A program made the position numbers and the translations under genes. From Sphingorhabdus sp. (lineage in GTDB: Bacteria; Pseudomonadota; Alphaproteobacteria; Sphingomonadales; Sphingomonadaceae): 64,000 nucleotides of DNA. Below are positions 4,082 to 31,443 of the stretch, one piece after another; positions within the stretch are counted from its first letter, which is position 1; each line of letters starts with the position of its first letter. Below the pieces are notes generated by a model, which was given only the letters and a program-made list of their open reading frames with translations, did not search any database and had not been told where the DNA came from. The stretch spans positions 248,001 through 312,000 of the forward strand of contig JANQNO010000008.1 of the NCBI GenBank assembly GCA_028279555.1, read 5' to 3'.

Positions 4082-5605
4082 ATGAAAAAGCGGTATAAAA
4101 TCCTGATCGGCCTGCTCGTTGTGGCGCTCGTCGGCGGCGCATTCGGCTATTGGTATTTCTCCACCGCTGCCAGCCGCGAAGTATCGCTGGTGGCCTGGAA
4201 CGAACATTGTGCCAGCTGCCATGGCAAATCGCTGGAGGGTACGGATCAGGCCGCAGCGCTTGTCGATGCGGAGCTCAAACATGGCGATAGCGTCGAGGAG
4301 ATGATGGCCATCATTGCCAAGGGCGTGCCCGGCACGACGATGACCGGCTGGGACGAGAAGCTGTCACCCCAGCGGATCAAGGCGCTCGCTCTGTTCATCA
4401 GCGAGCATCGCCAGAAATTCCCGACCACATCCGCTTCCTACGGCATGGAGCCGGGCGAAAGCCGGGTCATCACATCGCAGCATCATGATTTCAGGCTGGA
4501 ACGCGTTGCCTTGCTGGAGAGCCGGCCCTACTCGCTCGCGCCCATGCCCGATGGCAATGTGCTGGTTGCCGAGAAAGTCCGGGGGCTGTCGATCGTCGGG
4601 CAGGACGGCAAGCAAAGCCCGCTGATCACCGGCACGCCGGAAGTGTGGGACACGATCATCAGCGCCGGCGGCTCCTGGTTCAATCTCGGCACCGTGCTCG
4701 ATGTCGAACTGCATCCGGACTATGCGGAGAATGGCTGGATCTATCTGTCGCACACTGACCGCTGCAACTGGATGTGCGGCTGGGTCGTGCCGGGAACCAT
4801 GGTCCGGGTTGTCCGCGGGCGCATCAAGGACGGCAAGTGGACGGATCAGGAGGTCATCTGGTCGGTCCACACCGACCATTACACGCCGGTGCCGGATGCA
4901 GTCGCGGCCGGACGGCTGGCCTTCGACCGCAAGGGCCATCTCTATATCTCGATCGGCGGCAAGAACACCTATGGCAAGCTGCATGACCTGAATACGCCCT
5001 TCGGCAAGGTCCACCGCGTCCGCGATGATGGCAGCGTGCCCGAAGACAATCCCTTCTGGGTCGCCGCAGACAAGCGCGCGGAGACGTCCACCATCCACAC
5101 GGTGTGGAGCTATGGCCACCGGACGGGCCAGGGGCTCGACGGGCATCCCGATAATGGCGAAATCTGGAATACAGAGATGGGCCCGCGCGGCGGCGATGAG
5201 ATCAACCATATCCTGCGCGGCGAGAATTATGGCTGGCCGCTCTACACCAACGGTCTCGACTATAATGGCGAAGAGGTAGCGATCGGCAAGGATCTGGGCC
5301 TCGATTTCCCGATCGAGGATACCATTTTGCCGGCCGTCGATTTTACGCCCGCGCCCGCCGTTTCGAACTTCACCTTTCATGAGGGCACGCAGTTTCCCGG
5401 CTGGAACAATGATCTGCTCGTCGGCACGCTGAAGGCGGCGACGCTATACCGCGTCCGCATCGAGGATGGGAAGCAGGTCGAGCAGGAAAAGCTGATCACC
5501 GGTTTCGGGCGTATCCGCGATGTCGCGATGGGCGCGGACGGATTTGTCTATATCGTGCTGGAGCATAACGAGACAGGCTCGCTGTGGCGTATGGTGCCGG
5601 TTTAG
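4082..5605 (+). CDS. Membrane-anchored cytochrome c / PQQ-type sugar dehydrogenase fusion
   Basis: The 507-residue protein has an N-terminal membrane anchor (residues 7-26). A small class I cytochrome c domain follows, with CASCH haem-binding site at 43-47 and a likely axial Met in TTMTGW. From about residue 135 there is a glucose/sorbosone dehydrogenase-like six-bladed propeller: LAPMPDGNVLVAEK, GRLAFDRKGHLYISIGG and WNTEMGPRGGDEINH are typical of the soluble PQQ glucose dehydrogenase/YliI fold. It probably oxidises a periplasmic alcohol or aldose and passes electrons to its own haem. It ends the TetR operon, 3 bp after the second SDR. The substrate is unknown, and PQQ dependence is inferred from the fold. 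Confidence 0.85.
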   Translation: MKKRYKILIGLLVVALVGGAFGYWYFSTAASREVSLVAWNEHCASCHGKSLEGTDQAAALVDAELKHGDSVEEMMAIIAKGVPGTTMTGWDEKLSPQRIKALALFISEHRQKFPTTSASYGMEPGESRVITSQHHDFRLERVALLESRPYSLAPMPDGNVLVAEKVRGLSIVGQDGKQSPLITGTPEVWDTIISAGGSWFNLGTVLDVELHPDYAENGWIYLSHTDRCNWMCGWVVPGTMVRVVRGRIKDGKWTDQEVIWSVHTDHYTPVPDAVAAGRLAFDRKGHLYISIGGKNTYGKLHDLNTPFGKVHRVRDDGSVPEDNPFWVAADKRAETSTIHTVWSYGHRTGQGLDGHPDNGEIWNTEMGPRGGDEINHILRGENYGWPLYTNGLDYNGEEVAIGKDLGLDFPIEDTILPAVDFTPAPAVSNFTFHEGTQFPGWNNDLLVGTLKAATLYRVRIEDGKQVEQEKLITGFGRIRDVAMGADGFVYIVLEHNETGSLWRMVPV

Positions 5606-5632
5606 TTTGCTGTGGCGGTATGAAATTTCGGA

Positions 5633-5661
5633 TTGCATTTGTTCCACTCTTGTTCTAGCGG
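5633..5661 (+). promoter_or_regulatory. Promoter of the R-M operon with an SOS (LexA) box
   Basis: GTTC-N7-GTTC, the direct-repeat LexA box of alphaproteobacteria, lies at 5641-5655 in the context TTGTTC...TTGTTCTAG. It fills the 17-bp spacer between a possible -35 TTGCAT (5633-5638) and a possible -10 TAGCGG (5656-5661), a position where a repressor would block RNA polymerase. The box matches the known consensus exactly; LexA control of this operon is inferred. Confidence 0.6.
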
Positions 5662-5706
5662 AGCATTTATGACATGGAGTCAGAAAATGACCCAGGGAGA
5701 GCAGCA

Positions 5707-6942
5707 ATGTCCGAGTTTTCAAGACTGAGGAAACAGGCCGGGTTAAGCAAAGCCGAGGCGGCACTGATACTCCAGCAAAGCGAGCGCCAGATTTATCGCT
5801 GGGAAAACGGCGAATGCTTCCCCAAGGCTCCCGTTCTCGAAATGCTGAGGCAGCTTCGCAAGAACAGAGCTTCTCCCGATAATGAAAATCACGATTTCAC
5901 ATTCATTGACCTGTTCGCCGGAATTGGGGGCCTGAGAAAGGGTTTCGAAGCCATCAACGGCAAATGCATCTTCACCTGTGAATGGGACCGTTTTGCGCGC
6001 GAGACCTACCGGGCAAACAATCCGCTCGACGACCATGAAATTGCCGGTGACATCCGTGAAGTCGCGATGAAAGACATACCGGCACATGATGTGCTGCTGG
6101 CTGGTTTCCCCTGCCAGCCATTTTCCATAGCAGGTGTTTCAAAGAAGAACGCCCTGAATCGGCCACACGGTTTTGCCTGCGACGCCCAGGGAACATTGTT
6201 CTATAATGTGGCTGAAGTTATCAAACACCACAGGCCCAAGGCTTTCCTGCTGGAGAACGTCAAGAATCTGGTGAACCATGACAAGGGACACACCTTCAGG
6301 GTTATCCGTGACGTTCTTGAAAAAGAGCTCGGCTACCATATCGACTGGAAAGTCATAAATGGCAAAAGCTGGGTTCCCCAGAACAGGGAACGTATCTTTA
6401 TTGCCGGTTTCCGTGACGATACGGATTTCAGCTTCGATGGCATTGAGATTCCGGACTTACTGGACGGTCCCAAGCTATCCACTATCCTGCATCCGGAAGA
6501 TGGCAATGAAGCAGTGGAGAGGCGATATACCGGCGGCAATATCGCCCATGTTCTGGAGAAATACACGCTCTCTGAAAAACTATGGACCTATCTGCAAGGC
6601 TATGCGGCAAAGCATAGGGAAAAAGGCAACGGTTTCGGCTTCGGGCTATTCGGCCCAGATGATGTGGCCAGAACTTTGTCTGCAAGATATTACAAGGATG
6701 GCTCGGAAATCCTGATCCAGCAGGAAGGTAAAAGGCCGCGCCGCCTGACGCCGCGTGAATGCGCCAGGCTCATGGGATTTGACGAGCCAGGCAAAAGTGA
6801 CTTTTCCATTCCGGTTTCCGACACCCAAGCCTACAAGCAGTTTGGTAATTCTGTGGTGGTTCCCGCAGTGAAGGCTGTGGCAAAGCACATGGAAACGCAC
6901 ATCAAAGGCACAGCAAAAGCTGGAAAGAAGGCTGTTGCCTGA
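5707..6942 (+). CDS. DNA (cytosine-5) methyltransferase with N-terminal HTH, EcoRII/Dcm type
   Basis: The 411-residue protein has an N-terminal helix-turn-helix (about residues 3-50, LRKQAGLSKAEAALILQQSE) fused to a C5-methyltransferase. Visible motifs are I DLFAGIGG (68-75), IV PCQP with nucleophile Cys136, VI ENV (183-185), VIII in QNRERIFIAG and X in FGNSVV (379-384). Together with the EcoRII-type nuclease two genes on, this predicts methylation of the inner cytosine of CCWGG. The ATG at 5707 is preferred over 5674 because GGGAG lies 7 nt upstream. The HTH probably lets the enzyme repress its own promoter, as reported for M.EcoRII. Codon use is less GC-rich than in neighbouring genes, a sign of transfer. 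Confidence 0.93.
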   Translation: MSEFSRLRKQAGLSKAEAALILQQSERQIYRWENGECFPKAPVLEMLRQLRKNRASPDNENHDFTFIDLFAGIGGLRKGFEAINGKCIFTCEWDRFARETYRANNPLDDHEIAGDIREVAMKDIPAHDVLLAGFPCQPFSIAGVSKKNALNRPHGFACDAQGTLFYNVAEVIKHHRPKAFLLENVKNLVNHDKGHTFRVIRDVLEKELGYHIDWKVINGKSWVPQNRERIFIAGFRDDTDFSFDGIEIPDLLDGPKLSTILHPEDGNEAVERRYTGGNIAHVLEKYTLSEKLWTYLQGYAAKHREKGNGFGFGLFGPDDVARTLSARYYKDGSEILIQQEGKRPRRLTPRECARLMGFDEPGKSDFSIPVSDTQAYKQFGNSVVVPAVKAVAKHMETHIKGTAKAGKKAVA

Positions 6943-7402
6943 TGTAGTTTCTCCCGAAGTCCGCAGTCGCATGATGGCTGGTATCGGCGGGAAGAATACC
7001 AAACCAGAGTTGCAGGTCAGGAAGGCCTTGCACAGATTGGGATTCAGATATTCCCTTCACGCTAGGGATTTACCGGGCAAACCCGACCTCAAACTGCCCA
7101 AATACAATGCTGTGATTTTCGTGAATGGCTGTTTCTGGCACGGCCATGACTGTCATTTGTTCAGGTTGCCTGCAACCAGAACCGAATTCTGGAAAGACAA
7201 AATTGAAGGCAACAGAAAACGTGATCTGAATACAAGGACAGCACTTGCCAATAATGGATGGCGTGTGCTTGATATTTGGGAATGTGCAATAAAGGGAAAA
7301 ACATCGCTGGAAACTGCCGTCTGGGTTGGGAAGATTTCCGAATGGCTGACAGGCGACTCAGATCGTCTCGATATCAAGGGGAATGACATTGGCGCTTGCT
7401 AA
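6935..7402 (+). CDS. vsr: Very short patch repair (Vsr) DNA mismatch endonuclease
   Basis: The 155-residue protein matches the Vsr family over its full length. It has GKPDLKL with catalytic Asp51 at the same number as in the E. coli enzyme, then the NGCFWHGHDCHLF zinc/active-site segment (about residues 64-76) and PATRTEFWKDKI. Vsr nicks 5' of the T in T:G mismatches made when 5-methylcytosine deaminates at Dcm sites. The TTG at 6935 gives the canonical N-terminus and overlaps the methyltransferase stop by 8 nt, as vsr overlaps dcm in E. coli. It lies between methyltransferase and nuclease, so mutation repair is coexpressed with the methylation that makes it necessary. Confidence 0.93.
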   Translation: MPDVVSPEVRSRMMAGIGGKNTKPELQVRKALHRLGFRYSLHARDLPGKPDLKLPKYNAVIFVNGCFWHGHDCHLFRLPATRTEFWKDKIEGNRKRDLNTRTALANNGWRVLDIWECAIKGKTSLETAVWVGKISEWLTGDSDRLDIKGNDIGAC

Positions 7403-8621
7403 TCTTGCAGACTGGATAGACATGTTCGGACGGCAAGGGGCCGTCTGGTATGCCAAGCGCCTTGCAGCCAATGACACGCTAGCCAGCGGCGGACATCAGG
7501 CCGGTCCATATATTCCGAGGGAATTTCTCTTCGAACTATTACCAGACCTAAACAGGCCAGAACAAAAGAACCCCGATGTGCATTTCCAGCTCTACATCGA
7601 CTCGCACATATCGGAATTCTCGCACCGGAATATCCGTGCGGTCTGGTACAACAACAAGCTGCATGGAGGAACACGAAACGAAACGCGCCTGACGGGATTC
7701 AGTGGTGGTGGCTCTGCGCTGCTTGACCCAGACAATACCGGCGCGCTGGCTGTTTTTGCCTATTATCGCCCGGATGAAGATGCTCCTTTTGAATGTCATG
7801 TCTGGGTCTGTGACGATGAGGTGCAATCCGACCTGTTCGAGGAAAGGCTGGGCCCTGTTGAACCCGGCGAGTATGTCATCTGGCGTCCGGGAATGGCCGC
7901 CTTGCAGGGAGATTTGTTTTCGGCTCAGGTTGCCCCGCACGGCAGCTGCTGGCTGACACGCGAGCAGATACCTGATGACTGGCTGGTCAAATTTCCGACC
8001 GGCAGGGAAATTGTCCAGAAGACGATTGAACTTCGGCCCGCAACCGCAACGGATGTTGATACCAGGCTGCTCAGACGCCGGGACTGCGAATATGAGATGT
8101 TCCGAAGTGTGGAACAGGAATTTTACCGGGACAGGGTCACTGGCGGTTTTGGGAACATGGATGATTTCATAAGTCTCGCCAATACCGTTTTGCAAAGCAG
8201 AAAGAGCCGGTCGGGGAAATCGCTCGAATATCATACGATCGAAATTTTGACCGAAGAAGGCTTCCGGCAGGATCAGGATTTTGCATGGAATGTCGAGATC
8301 GATGGCAAGCGTCCCGATTTCCTTTTTCCATCACTAGAAGCCTACAATGACAGCTCATTTCCTTCAAACAAACTTACAATGCTTGCAGCAAAAACAACCT
8401 GTAAAGATCGCTGGCGGCAAATTCGTGACGAAGTTGATCGTGACAGAATACCGCTACTCTATCTGCTTACTCTTCAGGAAGGAGTGTCCAAAAACCAGAT
8501 GGCACAAATGCAGGAGGCCGGTGTTCAACTTGTAGTGCCATCGGCACTCCACAAAAGCTACCCTGCCGCCGTTAGGGAATCTCTCCAAACCCTTGATACT
8601 TTTATCACTTCGCTCCGATGA
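7383..8621 (+). CDS. EcoRII-type restriction endonuclease
   Basis: The 412-residue protein is close in size to EcoRII. The C-terminal nuclease domain keeps the EcoRII catalytic spacing: Asp312 in RPDFLFP, Tyr321 in AYND, Lys337, Lys341 and Arg343 in AAKTTCKDRWRQ. This corresponds to the D-x8-Y-x15-K-x3-K-x-R pattern of EcoRII. Residues about 1-180 would form the effector-binding domain that makes EcoRII need two sites. It should cleave unmethylated CCWGG. The start overlaps vsr by 20 nt, so translation is probably coupled and the nuclease is made last. All catalytic residues are present, so activity is expected. Confidence 0.92.
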   Translation: MTLALANLADWIDMFGRQGAVWYAKRLAANDTLASGGHQAGPYIPREFLFELLPDLNRPEQKNPDVHFQLYIDSHISEFSHRNIRAVWYNNKLHGGTRNETRLTGFSGGGSALLDPDNTGALAVFAYYRPDEDAPFECHVWVCDDEVQSDLFEERLGPVEPGEYVIWRPGMAALQGDLFSAQVAPHGSCWLTREQIPDDWLVKFPTGREIVQKTIELRPATATDVDTRLLRRRDCEYEMFRSVEQEFYRDRVTGGFGNMDDFISLANTVLQSRKSRSGKSLEYHTIEILTEEGFRQDQDFAWNVEIDGKRPDFLFPSLEAYNDSSFPSNKLTMLAAKTTCKDRWRQIRDEVDRDRIPLLYLLTLQEGVSKNQMAQMQEAGVQLVVPSALHKSYPAAVRESLQTLDTFITSLR

Positions 8622-8947
8622 GCATATTGATCCCGATTCAATTTTCCTACACGCCGTAAATCTGCTTGTATCGCTATTACGGCTCTTTGACATTTGCCGG
8701 AAACGCGCTGTTTCGTGCTTCTTACGACTCCATATTTTCTCGCGTTGATTCTGCATTTCAGTATCGCCAGCAATCTCTGGTCTTTGCGGCAAACCGACCC
8801 TAACCTTCCTTACCTTTCGACACGCTCAAGACAGGCCTTTGGAAGATTATTTCCTACACCCTTAAAGCCTCGCTTCTACATCCCCGATTGACAGCAAGGC
8901 TCCATCTGCGAAAACTCAGAGCGACCAGACACCAAGAGGCACACCCC
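8622..8947. other. AT-rich spacer after the R-M operon, no gene seen
   Basis: These 326 bases have a lower GC content than the flanks and no convincing reading frame in any direction. A short segment near 8817-8838 (TTCGACACGCTCAAGACAGG) resembles a degenerate copy of the dispersed repeat at 44506-44575. The segment probably marks the right edge of the transferred island and holds the promoter of the carotenoid oxygenase gene, but no -35/-10 pair stands out. Confidence 0.4.
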
Positions 8948-10417
8948 ATGAATATCGCCGTCAAACCTGTTCCCGCCTCGCTGCCGCCCAACGACCATCC
9001 CTATCGCAATGGCCCCTGGACGCCGCTGCATGAGGAGGTCGATGCGCGCGATATGGAGGTGATCGGCGAAATCCCTGCCGATATCGACGGCGTCTATATC
9101 CGCAACACCGAAAATCCGTTGCATCCCTCCATCGGCCGCTATCATCCCTTCGATGGCGACGGCATGCTGCATATGATGCGCATTTCGGGCGGCAAGGCGG
9201 AATATAAAAACCGCTTCGTGCGCACCAAGGCTTTTGGCGCGGAGCAGGAGGCGGGCGGGCCGCTCTGGCTGGGCTGCATGGGCCGCGCGGACGAGACCTC
9301 ACCGCCGGGCTGCGGCATGACGGGGCATATCAAGGATGCCTCCTCCACCGATGTCGTGGTGCATGCCGGCGAGGTGCTTTCGACGCATTGGCAATGCGGC
9401 GAAGGTTACCGGCTCAATCCCGCGACGCTGGAGACGCTGGGCATCGAGGGCTGGGTGCCCGCGAACGGTATTTCCGCGCATCCCAAATTCGATCCGCATA
9501 CGGGCGAGCTGCTCTTCTTCAACTATGCGACGAGCAAGCCCTATATGCAGTATGGCGTGGTCGGGCCGGACAATGCGCTCAGGCATATCACCGATATCGA
9601 CCTGCCGGGGCCGAGGCTGCCGCATGACATGGCCTTTACCGAGCGCTATGCGATCCTCAACGATTTGCCGATGTATATGTCGCAGGCCGTCATCGACAAG
9701 AAGGTCTATGTGCCGACCTATCACCCCGATGAAAAATCGCGCTTCGGCATCCTTCCGCGCATGGCGGACGGCAGCGAAATCAAATGGTTCGAGGCCGAGC
9801 CGACCTATATCCTGCATTTCGTCAATGCCTATGAGGATGGCGAGACGGTTGTGATGGATGCCTATTTCGAAGGCCAGCCCGACCCGCCGCCGCTGGAGGA
9901 TGAAAATATCGCGCCGGAATATCGCAAGATGGCGGCGAATATCGACCTGCATTCGATGCAGACGCATCTCAGGCGCTGGCGCTTCGACATGGCGACGGGC
10001 GAGACGCGCGAAGAAGTGCTGTATGACGATGAATATGTCGAGTTCGGCACGATCAATCCGAAGGTTGCGGGGCGCAAATACCGCTATGTCTATGACGTGG
10101 TCGGCAAGCCCGGCTGGTTCCTTTTTACCGGACTCAGAAAGCATGATCTGGAAACCGGCGAGACGCAGAAATATGATTTCGGCGAGGAGCGCTATGGCAG
10201 CGAAAGCCCCTTCATTCCGCGAAAAGGGGCCGCGGCAGAAGATGATGGCTATCTGGTCAGCTTCGTCACCGACATGCGCGAGGACTGCAGCGAATGCGTG
10301 ATCCTCGATGCGCGTGACATCACCCAGGGGCCGATCGCGCGGATCATGCTGCCGCACCGGATGTCGAGCGGCACCCATGCCGTGTGGGCCGAGGCGGAAG
10401 AATTCGAGGCAGGATGA
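8948..10417 (+). CDS. Carotenoid oxygenase family protein (cleavage dioxygenase)
   Basis: The 489-residue protein begins with the family's DGVYIRNTENPLHP and RYHPFDGDGMLHMM segments. It carries the four iron-binding histidines in the expected order: GISAHPKFDP, PHDMAFTERY, ILHFVNAYED and, near the C-terminus, SGTHAVW. Members cleave a double bond in carotenoids, apocarotenoids or stilbenes with O2 and a mononuclear Fe(II). In sphingomonads, relatives act on lignin-derived stilbenes or on carotenoids; the sequence alone does not decide. The ATG at 8948 fits the family N-terminus; the frame stays open upstream to 8888 but without a good start signal. Confidence 0.88.
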   Translation: MNIAVKPVPASLPPNDHPYRNGPWTPLHEEVDARDMEVIGEIPADIDGVYIRNTENPLHPSIGRYHPFDGDGMLHMMRISGGKAEYKNRFVRTKAFGAEQEAGGPLWLGCMGRADETSPPGCGMTGHIKDASSTDVVVHAGEVLSTHWQCGEGYRLNPATLETLGIEGWVPANGISAHPKFDPHTGELLFFNYATSKPYMQYGVVGPDNALRHITDIDLPGPRLPHDMAFTERYAILNDLPMYMSQAVIDKKVYVPTYHPDEKSRFGILPRMADGSEIKWFEAEPTYILHFVNAYEDGETVVMDAYFEGQPDPPPLEDENIAPEYRKMAANIDLHSMQTHLRRWRFDMATGETREEVLYDDEYVEFGTINPKVAGRKYRYVYDVVGKPGWFLFTGLRKHDLETGETQKYDFGEERYGSESPFIPRKGAAAEDDGYLVSFVTDMREDCSECVILDARDITQGPIARIMLPHRMSSGTHAVWAEAEEFEAG

Positions 10418-31181: not shown

Positions 31182-31443
31182 TGCCTGTCCTTGATTCAAG
31201 TCACCGAAAATCGCAACCCTCTATATCGGCTTTGCTGGCGGGGGCAAGCTTTCACAATGCTGAACCGGACGTGGATGCCGCCTCCAAAATAGATGCAAAA
31301 ATGCCACCAATTGCTTCAATTTACCGCCGATTGTGTGGGTTTTGCCACAGATTCGTAAAATATGTTCAGTAACCGTTCAAATGCCTTGGGCGAACAGCCA
31401 AACGGGTCTACTAAAAAGTGCCTGGATTCGAAATAGAGTGAAG

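What the first reader, a model, noticed from the sequence alone, without database searches (positions are those of the whole stretch)
5633..5661. SOS box in the promoter of a type II restriction-modification operon
A perfect GTTC-N7-GTTC lies in the 17-bp spacer between a plausible -35 and -10 ahead of the methyltransferase-vsr-nuclease operon. LexA control of a restriction operon would link restriction, methylation and T:G repair to DNA damage. Type II systems are usually controlled by C proteins or by the methyltransferase, not LexA, so this would be unusual.
Basis: partly seen in the sequence, partly recalled or inferred. Interest (0 to 1): 0.75.

Follow-up and report, generated by a model that had tools for sequence, protein, structure and literature searches.

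The report
DNA-damage switch on a restriction operon
A bacterial DNA-cutting defence operon carries in its promoter the same DNA-damage (SOS) control sequence as the recA repair gene, and many related operons in other bacteria carry one too, so this kind of defence is probably switched up when the cell's DNA is damaged.

Summary
Window 5641-5655 is GTTCCACTCTTGTTC. The bare pattern is not rare (51 sites in this genome), but this exact 15-mer occurs only twice: here and in the recA promoter (19 bases shared). In 99 family genomes it occurs 13 times: 12 before recA, once here. Scored with a matrix from other genomes' recA and lexA promoters, it ranks joint second of 51, level with recA. An exact box lies just upstream of the homologous methyltransferase in 33 of 83 alphaproteobacterial loci; ten control patterns give 0 or 1. 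Homology to the nearest relative begins at the box while the flanks differ, so the operator travels with the module. A second element at the inferred -10 resembles the M.SsoII autoregulatory site. Most likely: a methyltransferase-Vsr-EcoRII operon under dual control, LexA repression plus methyltransferase autorepression. Extensions: an unrelated methyltransferase family (NaeI-like nuclease beside one member) has boxes in 9 of 14 loci; beta/gamma-type boxes precede 6 of 74 non-alpha homologues (0.25 expected). Type I-like methyltransferases: 0 of 30. No binding or induction was tested. Prior art: predicted SOS-linked hsdS (gut) and damage-induced vsrA in Caulobacter.

The parts
5641..5655 (+). 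LexA (SOS) box GTTCCACTCTTGTTC
   Evidence: conserved upstream of homologous methyltransferases
5638..5656 (+). 19-bp stretch identical to the recA promoter of the same genome
5650..5655 (+). candidate -35 (TTGTTC), overlapping the second half of the LexA box
   Evidence: inference from spacing to the conserved dyad and from the homology boundary at 5638
5673..5678 (+). candidate -10 (CATGGA; CATAGA in L106), 17 bp from TTGTTC
   Evidence: inference
5670..5682 (+). dyad TGACATGGAGTCA, probable operator of the methyltransferase's own HTH domain
   Evidence: at most 2 mismatches in 53 of 72 homologues; same layout as the M.SsoII regulatory site AGGACAAATTGTCCT (PMC6100179, passages)
5707..6942 (+). 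C5-cytosine methyltransferase with N-terminal helix-turn-helix; possible RBS AGGGAG 5694-5699 (an upstream ATG at 5674 is not conserved in L106)
   Evidence: motifs PCQ, ENV, QxRxR, GNS present
6935..7402 (+). vsr, T:G mismatch endonuclease (overlaps the methyltransferase end)
7383..8621 (+). EcoRII-type restriction endonuclease (overlaps vsr end)
   Evidence: EcoRII-N, EcoRII-C; 1na6, E 7.4e-94; KTTCKDRWRQ
5638..8539 (+). stretch homologous by blastn (83% identity) to L106 (uncultured Erythrobacter); its left edge is at the LexA box, flanks unrelated

Best explanation
This is a horizontally mobile EcoRII-type restriction-modification module (HTH-methyltransferase, Vsr, EcoRII nuclease, overlapping genes) whose promoter carries two operators. 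LexA binds the recA-grade box at the -35 region and represses the operon in unstressed cells. RecA-driven LexA cleavage during DNA damage relieves this, so methylation, T:G repair and restriction rise together with recA. The methyltransferase's own N-terminal domain binds the dyad over the -10 and caps expression. Shown by sequence: the box, its identity with the recA box, its conservation, the LexA gene, the dyad, the gene order. Inferred: co-transcription, LexA and methyltransferase binding, repression, induction, and the purpose. I think the purpose is most likely to raise defence and keep new repair DNA methylated when damage or incoming DNA triggers SOS.
For: Same 15-mer at recA and here only, 19 bp shared; 12 of 13 copies in 99 genomes are at recA. 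GTTC-N7-GTTC stands at the promoter position before recA in 26 of 30 and before lexA in 28 of 30 fetched family loci. Own LexA present, equivalog TIGR00498, with its own box. Matrix rank joint 2 of 51. Exact box upstream in 33 of 83 alphaproteobacterial homologues, controls 0-1; for HTH-bearing ones 32 of 72 exact and 55 of 72 with at most one mismatch, controls 0-1 and 6-16. The rate elsewhere in the same 77 family and class loci predicts 0.46 boxes against 29 seen. The box occurs in both orientations; the tree needs at least 14 changes of box presence, 7 forced by starred branches. The preceding gene is on the + strand and ends at 5605, so no divergent neighbour explains the box. The box moves with the module.
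Against: No binding, transcript or induction data. The distance from box to dyad centre varies from 17 to 60 bp (one locus, L216, has its best but poor dyad upstream of the box), and in many loci the box lies upstream of the inferred -35, so repression by simple occlusion is less certain there. 47 of the 80 loci in the tree lack an exact box, and box presence is clustered on the tree (0 of 500 shuffles as low), so part of the conservation is plain inheritance. Of 30 Vsr loci fetched, 25 show no operon box in the stretch held. The -10 is weak. The published Caulobacter vsrA promoter P1 is not damage-responsive (PMC12907096, passages).
Confidence: 0.88

Rival explanations
1. The GTTC repeat is the operator of the methyltransferase's own helix-turn-helix domain, not of LexA.
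For: The methyltransferase has an N-terminal HTH, and methyltransferases of this kind repress their own promoters through such a domain (PMC3874152 and PMC6100179, passages).
Against: A separate dyad with the layout of the M.SsoII site is present in most homologues with or without the GTTC box. The box is identical to recA's. Boxes also occur before relatives whose HTH region did not align (4 of 11) and before an unrelated methyltransferase family (9 of 14). The box flips orientation.
Confidence: 0.04
2. Chance: 51 such motifs exist in the genome, and one fell before this operon.
For: The motif as such is not enriched.
Against: Identity with the recA box, matrix rank, conservation in 33 of 83 loci against 0-1 for controls.
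Confidence: 0.02
3. The box is conserved only because TTGTTC is a usable -35 hexamer; LexA plays no part.
For: One half-site can be read as -35 here, in L106 and L097, and as ATGTTC in L095.
Against: The second half-site at exactly 7 bp is what is conserved; spacings 4, 5, 6, 8, 9 and 10 give 0-1 of 83. In many loci a TTG hexamer downstream of the box can serve as -35.
Confidence: 0.04
4. LexA binds but the effect that matters is Vsr repair of T:G mismatches; restriction is a passenger.
For: vsr follows the methyltransferase directly in 72 of 83 alphaproteobacterial loci, while a strong match to the EcoRII nuclease is seen in 13 of 83 (many stretches end too early to tell). Caulobacter vsrA is damage-induced (PMC12907096, passages).
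Against: L307 and L308, of the NaeI-like family, showed no Vsr match but carry the box; against that, genome G036 has a Vsr match about 1 kb behind its member of that family, a locus (L389) that the script did not place. The five operon boxes among 30 Vsr loci lie before the linked methyltransferase, not before vsr. L190 and L097 have the box without a directly following vsr.
Confidence: 0.2

Closest known systems
EcoRII / Dcm-Vsr type restriction-modification (CCWGG)
   Same: EcoRII two-domain nuclease, C5-methyltransferase of the dcm superfamily, Vsr
   Different: LexA box in the promoter; three overlapping genes in one direction. No LexA control of EcoRII is described in the passages I saw (PMC3874152); 'LexA' does not occur in the main text of the review PMC12707154.
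SsoII / Ecl18kI type autoregulation by the methyltransferase N-terminus
   Same: N-terminal HTH and a dyad xGACAnnnTGTCx at the methyltransferase promoter (PMC6100179, passages)
   Different: here a LexA operator is added, and the nuclease follows in the same direction rather than across the regulatory intergenic region
Caulobacter crescentus vsrA/scmA (PMC12907096, passages)
   Same: damage-induced Vsr and an exact GTTC-N7-GTTC, also an alphaproteobacterium
   Different: there the box is inside the vsrA ORF, the mapped promoter has none, and the methyltransferase is described as solitary
SOS-linked type I hsdS predicted in the human gut meta-regulon (PMC3998124, passages)
   Same: a predicted SOS-restriction link
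   Different: type I, from gut metagenome data; here type II in Alphaproteobacteria, and type I-like N6 methyltransferases (PF02384) showed 0 of 30 boxes
SOS-controlled toxins such as symE (PMC3874152, passages)
   Same: a toxic module hooked to LexA
   Different: RNA-regulated toxin, not a restriction nuclease

Membership tests
Alphaproteobacterial LexA (SOS) regulon | GTTC-N7-GTTC box matching the lineage's recA/lexA boxes | tested here: met
   GTTCN7GTTC given for Caulobacter in PMC9578287 (passages)
Alphaproteobacterial LexA (SOS) regulon | box in the promoter region and conserved in homologues | tested here: met
   exact in 33 of 83, so not universal
Alphaproteobacterial LexA (SOS) regulon | LexA present in the genome | tested here: met
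Alphaproteobacterial LexA (SOS) regulon | LexA binds and represses; operon induced by damage | not testable with these tools
   needs EMSA, footprint, RNA after mitomycin C
EcoRII-type RM | EcoRII-N plus EcoRII-C nuclease and C5-methyltransferase | tested here: met
EcoRII-type RM | recognition of CCWGG | not testable with these tools
   inferred from the nuclease and Vsr families only
Methyltransferase-autoregulated RM (SsoII/EcoRII mode) | N-terminal HTH and dyad operator at own promoter | tested here: met
   (the HTH match is 26.1 and 23.5 bits, at about the Pfam cut-offs of 27 and 23)
Methyltransferase-autoregulated RM (SsoII/EcoRII mode) | methyltransferase binds the dyad and represses | not testable with these tools
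   no binding data
C-protein controlled RM | separate small HTH controller gene with C-boxes | tested here: inconclusive
   only about 100 bp lie between the preceding gene and the methyltransferase, and the one HTH found is fused to the methyltransferase; other ORFs of 50 aa or more in 5606-8960 mostly overlap the three genes and were not scanned against the family libraries

The most novel reading that the evidence does not exclude
LexA control is a recurrent, repeatedly acquired feature of mobile type II restriction modules. Unrelated systems (EcoRII-type with Vsr; a NaeI-like system found beside nrdB) have hooked themselves to their host's SOS circuit, using whichever LexA motif the host lineage has (GTTC-N7-GTTC in alphaproteobacteria, CTGT-N8-ACAG in beta/gamma), so that restriction and protective methylation are damage-inducible.
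Probability: 0.6. Interest if true: 0.85.

Novelty: new variant of a known kind. Interest (0 to 1): 0.73.

Why it matters
Type II restriction is described as controlled by C proteins or by the methyltransferase itself (PMC3874152, passages). Widespread LexA operators would make restriction, methylation and T:G repair part of the DNA-damage response. That bears on gene transfer under stress, on prophage induction, on post-segregational killing (where restriction itself triggers SOS, so feedback is possible), and on transformation of these bacteria in the laboratory. The claim is testable with ordinary reporters.

Tried and rejected
Capture of a whole recA promoter: rejected, similarity is only 19 bp. 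Bare-motif enrichment as evidence: rejected, the motif is rarer than the reversed control. Box specific to HTH-bearing methyltransferases: rejected, 4 of 11 relatives whose HTH region did not align (L069, L071, L188, L206; L206 has a longer frame) and 4 of 17 other C5-methyltransferase loci (L307, L308, L313, L317) also have one. One search gave 4 of 18; L079 was dropped afterwards because the script picked a wrong frame there. L307 and L308 belong to the NaeI-like family and recur as L379 and L385. RM systems in general: rejected, PF02384 methyltransferases 0 of 30 (the N6/N8 spacing control gave 3). Vsr alone as the driver: the operon boxes among the 30 Vsr loci (L319, L328, L329, L343, L344) lie about 1.3-1.6 kb from vsr, at the linked methyltransferase; one more box (L328, +414) lies near the end of vsr. 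Deeper sampling of Gammaproteobacteria: one search failed and was not replaced. My notebook says recA 27/30 and lexA 29/30; recounted, 26 and 28 of 30 are at the promoter position (plus L277, a truncated lexA locus with a box). 30 of 37 recA places and 30 of 41 lexA places found were fetched.

Full report
WHAT IS THERE. Window 5641-5655 reads GTTCCACTCTTGTTC. It lies 35 bp after a glucose/sorbosone-dehydrogenase-like gene that ends at 5605 on the same strand, and 51 bp before the likely ATG of a C5-methyltransferase at 5707. The methyltransferase has an N-terminal helix-turn-helix and is followed, with overlapping ends, by vsr and an EcoRII nuclease with both EcoRII domains. The expected sequence motifs are present in all three. 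The operon is lower in G+C (0.48-0.52) than the three neighbouring stretches measured (0.59-0.61).

IS IT MORE THAN CHANCE. The bare motif is not. The window has 2 against 1.18 expected, and the genome has 51 against 81 for the reversed pattern. The full sequence is. Of the 51 sites only two are GTTCCACTCTTGTTC: this one and the recA promoter; the best local alignment of the two regions is 19 bases. In 99 genomes of the same family the 15-mer occurs at 13 places; 12 are followed by recA and the thirteenth is this operon.

IS GTTC-N7-GTTC THE LEXA BOX OF THIS LINEAGE. In 30 recA and 30 lexA loci from the family (of 37 and 41 places found), the pattern stands at the promoter position in 26 and 28. 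The genome has one LexA match, with a box just upstream (C5:360592). A weight matrix from 25 recA and 27 lexA boxes of other genomes ranks the operon's box joint second of 51, level with recA. Rank 1 is before an S24, CI-like repressor; rank 4 a PA0069-type radical SAM gene; lexA is 7, an mmcB-like gene 9, a radA-like gene 10, rmuC 18, an imuA-like gene 19, a uvrD-like gene 23. From about rank 11 on, sites inside genes are mixed in, so the list is not clean.

CONSERVATION. The methyltransferase was sought in 397 genomes of the family (59 places in 54 genomes), in 385 of the class (21 places, own included) and among named genomes (80 loci kept of 192 relatives). Of 83 alphaproteobacterial loci (57 family, 20 class, 6 named; L095 and L096 are copies; L097's record names no class and was included by similarity), 33 have an exact box within 160 bp upstream. 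Six other spacings and four other motifs give 0 or 1 each. For the 72 with the HTH domain the counts are 32 exact and 55 with at most one mismatch, against 0-1 and 6-16 for controls. The rate elsewhere in the same 77 family and class loci predicts 0.46; 29 were seen. On the tree of 80 proteins box presence needs at least 14 changes, 7 forced by starred branches, and both orientations occur. It is also clustered (0 of 500 shuffles as low), so inheritance accounts for part of it. I read this as several gains and losses on top of inheritance.

THE MODULE. Against the nearest relative (L106, uncultured Erythrobacter, methyltransferase 93% identical) blastn homology runs from 5638 to 8539. The 60 bases before the box match at 17 of 60, the box at 14 of 15. 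The operator is therefore the left edge of the shared unit. vsr directly follows the methyltransferase in 72 of 83 loci; a strong match to this EcoRII nuclease is seen in 13 of 83, with many stretches ending too early to tell. The constant part is methyltransferase plus Vsr.

SECOND OPERATOR. Between box and start codon most homologues have a dyad TGACA-N3-TGTCA (0-2 mismatches in 53 of 72; about 3% of shuffles). It has the layout of the M.SsoII regulatory site AGGACAAATTGTCCT, which binds the methyltransferase N-terminus (PMC6100179, passages). At up to 3 mismatches it is found in 64 of 72; five control dyads give 12-20, but one related arrangement, TGTCA-N3-TGACA, gives 53 at that loose cut. 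In L068 (TTGAAC-17-CATAAT) a plausible -10 sits inside the dyad. By the same spacing the window's promoter would be TTGTTC (5650-5655) - 17 - CATGGA (5673-5678). This assignment is inference.

OTHER SYSTEMS. Control loci brought a surprise. An unrelated C5-methyltransferase, followed in L307 by a NaeI-like nuclease and preceded there by nrdB, has an exact box directly upstream in 9 of 14 homologous loci (3 loci not placed by the script, 2 without; L379 and L380 are 97% alike). The nuclease was tested in L307 only. Two further C5-methyltransferases (L313, L317) also have a box. Type I-like N6 methyltransferases (PF02384) have none in 30. Of 74 non-alpha homologues, six have CTGT-N8-ACAG within 400 bp upstream, where 0.25 are expected from the rest of the same loci and two neighbouring spacings and one other dyad give none; that expectation does not correct for the A+T-richness of promoters. 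In three of the six (L121, L150, L151) a divergent vsr lies on the other side of the box.

MECHANISM. I infer LexA repression at basal level and SOS induction of all three genes, with methyltransferase autorepression as a cap. Basal expression must persist, because the host needs methylation; an operator like recA's is compatible with that. Purpose is open: defence raised when damage or incoming DNA triggers SOS, methylation of repair DNA, T:G repair, or a selfish link to host stress.

LITERATURE. Ten searches showed no report of a LexA box in a type II RM promoter in their listings or in the passages I read; most listed papers were not opened, the library holds only open-licence papers, and da Rocha 2008 on the Caulobacter SOS regulon was not held. 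Nearest prior art, seen as passages: PMC12907096 (Caulobacter vsrA damage-induced, box inside the gene) and PMC3998124 (hsdS predicted in the gut SOS meta-regulon). PMC4405046 (passages) describes a Vibrio cholerae island with LexA sites at its recA and umuDC and a type II restriction gene elsewhere on it, without a LexA site named for that gene. Names that I use beyond the record titles (Sphingomonadaceae for family f1) are recalled, not from a call.

Noticed in passing
L379-L381, L383-L388 (box begins 30 to 55 bp before the methyltransferase start): A C5-methyltransferase family whose L307 member is followed by a NaeI-like nuclease carries exact LexA boxes in 9 of 14 loci, in both orientations; in L383-L387 directly behind a TTGAC.
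   Followed up: partly
L042:1983-1997 (G000:C6:203482): The best-scoring LexA box of the genome precedes an S24-peptidase, CI-like repressor gene (212 aa), perhaps a second damage-responsive repressor.
   Followed up: no
L020/L021 (G000:C4:73801 and 73835): Two LexA boxes 34 bp apart between a gene that reads like ribosomal protein S2 (by eye) and an unknown 80-aa ORF without a Pfam match.
   Followed up: no
L118, L121, L127, L094, L150, L151 upstream of the methyltransferase: CTGT-N8-ACAG (beta/gamma LexA type) before homologous methyltransferases, in three of them with a divergent vsr beyond it.
   Followed up: partly
G183 (L174 and L213): One genome holds two closely related copies of the methyltransferase, one with an exact box and one without.
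   Followed up: no
L022:1531-2238: A 236-aa protein without Pfam or NCBIfam match lies 15 bp behind a high-scoring box GTTCTTTTTTTGTTC; a possible unknown SOS gene.
   Followed up: no
window 31364-31378: The second GTTC-N7-GTTC of the window lies inside an ORF and scores low (11.39); probably chance.
   Followed up: yes
window 5692-5696: A CCAGG (possible own methylation site) lies in the leader; a CCCAG core recurs in many homologues but often without the following G of CCWGG.
   Followed up: no
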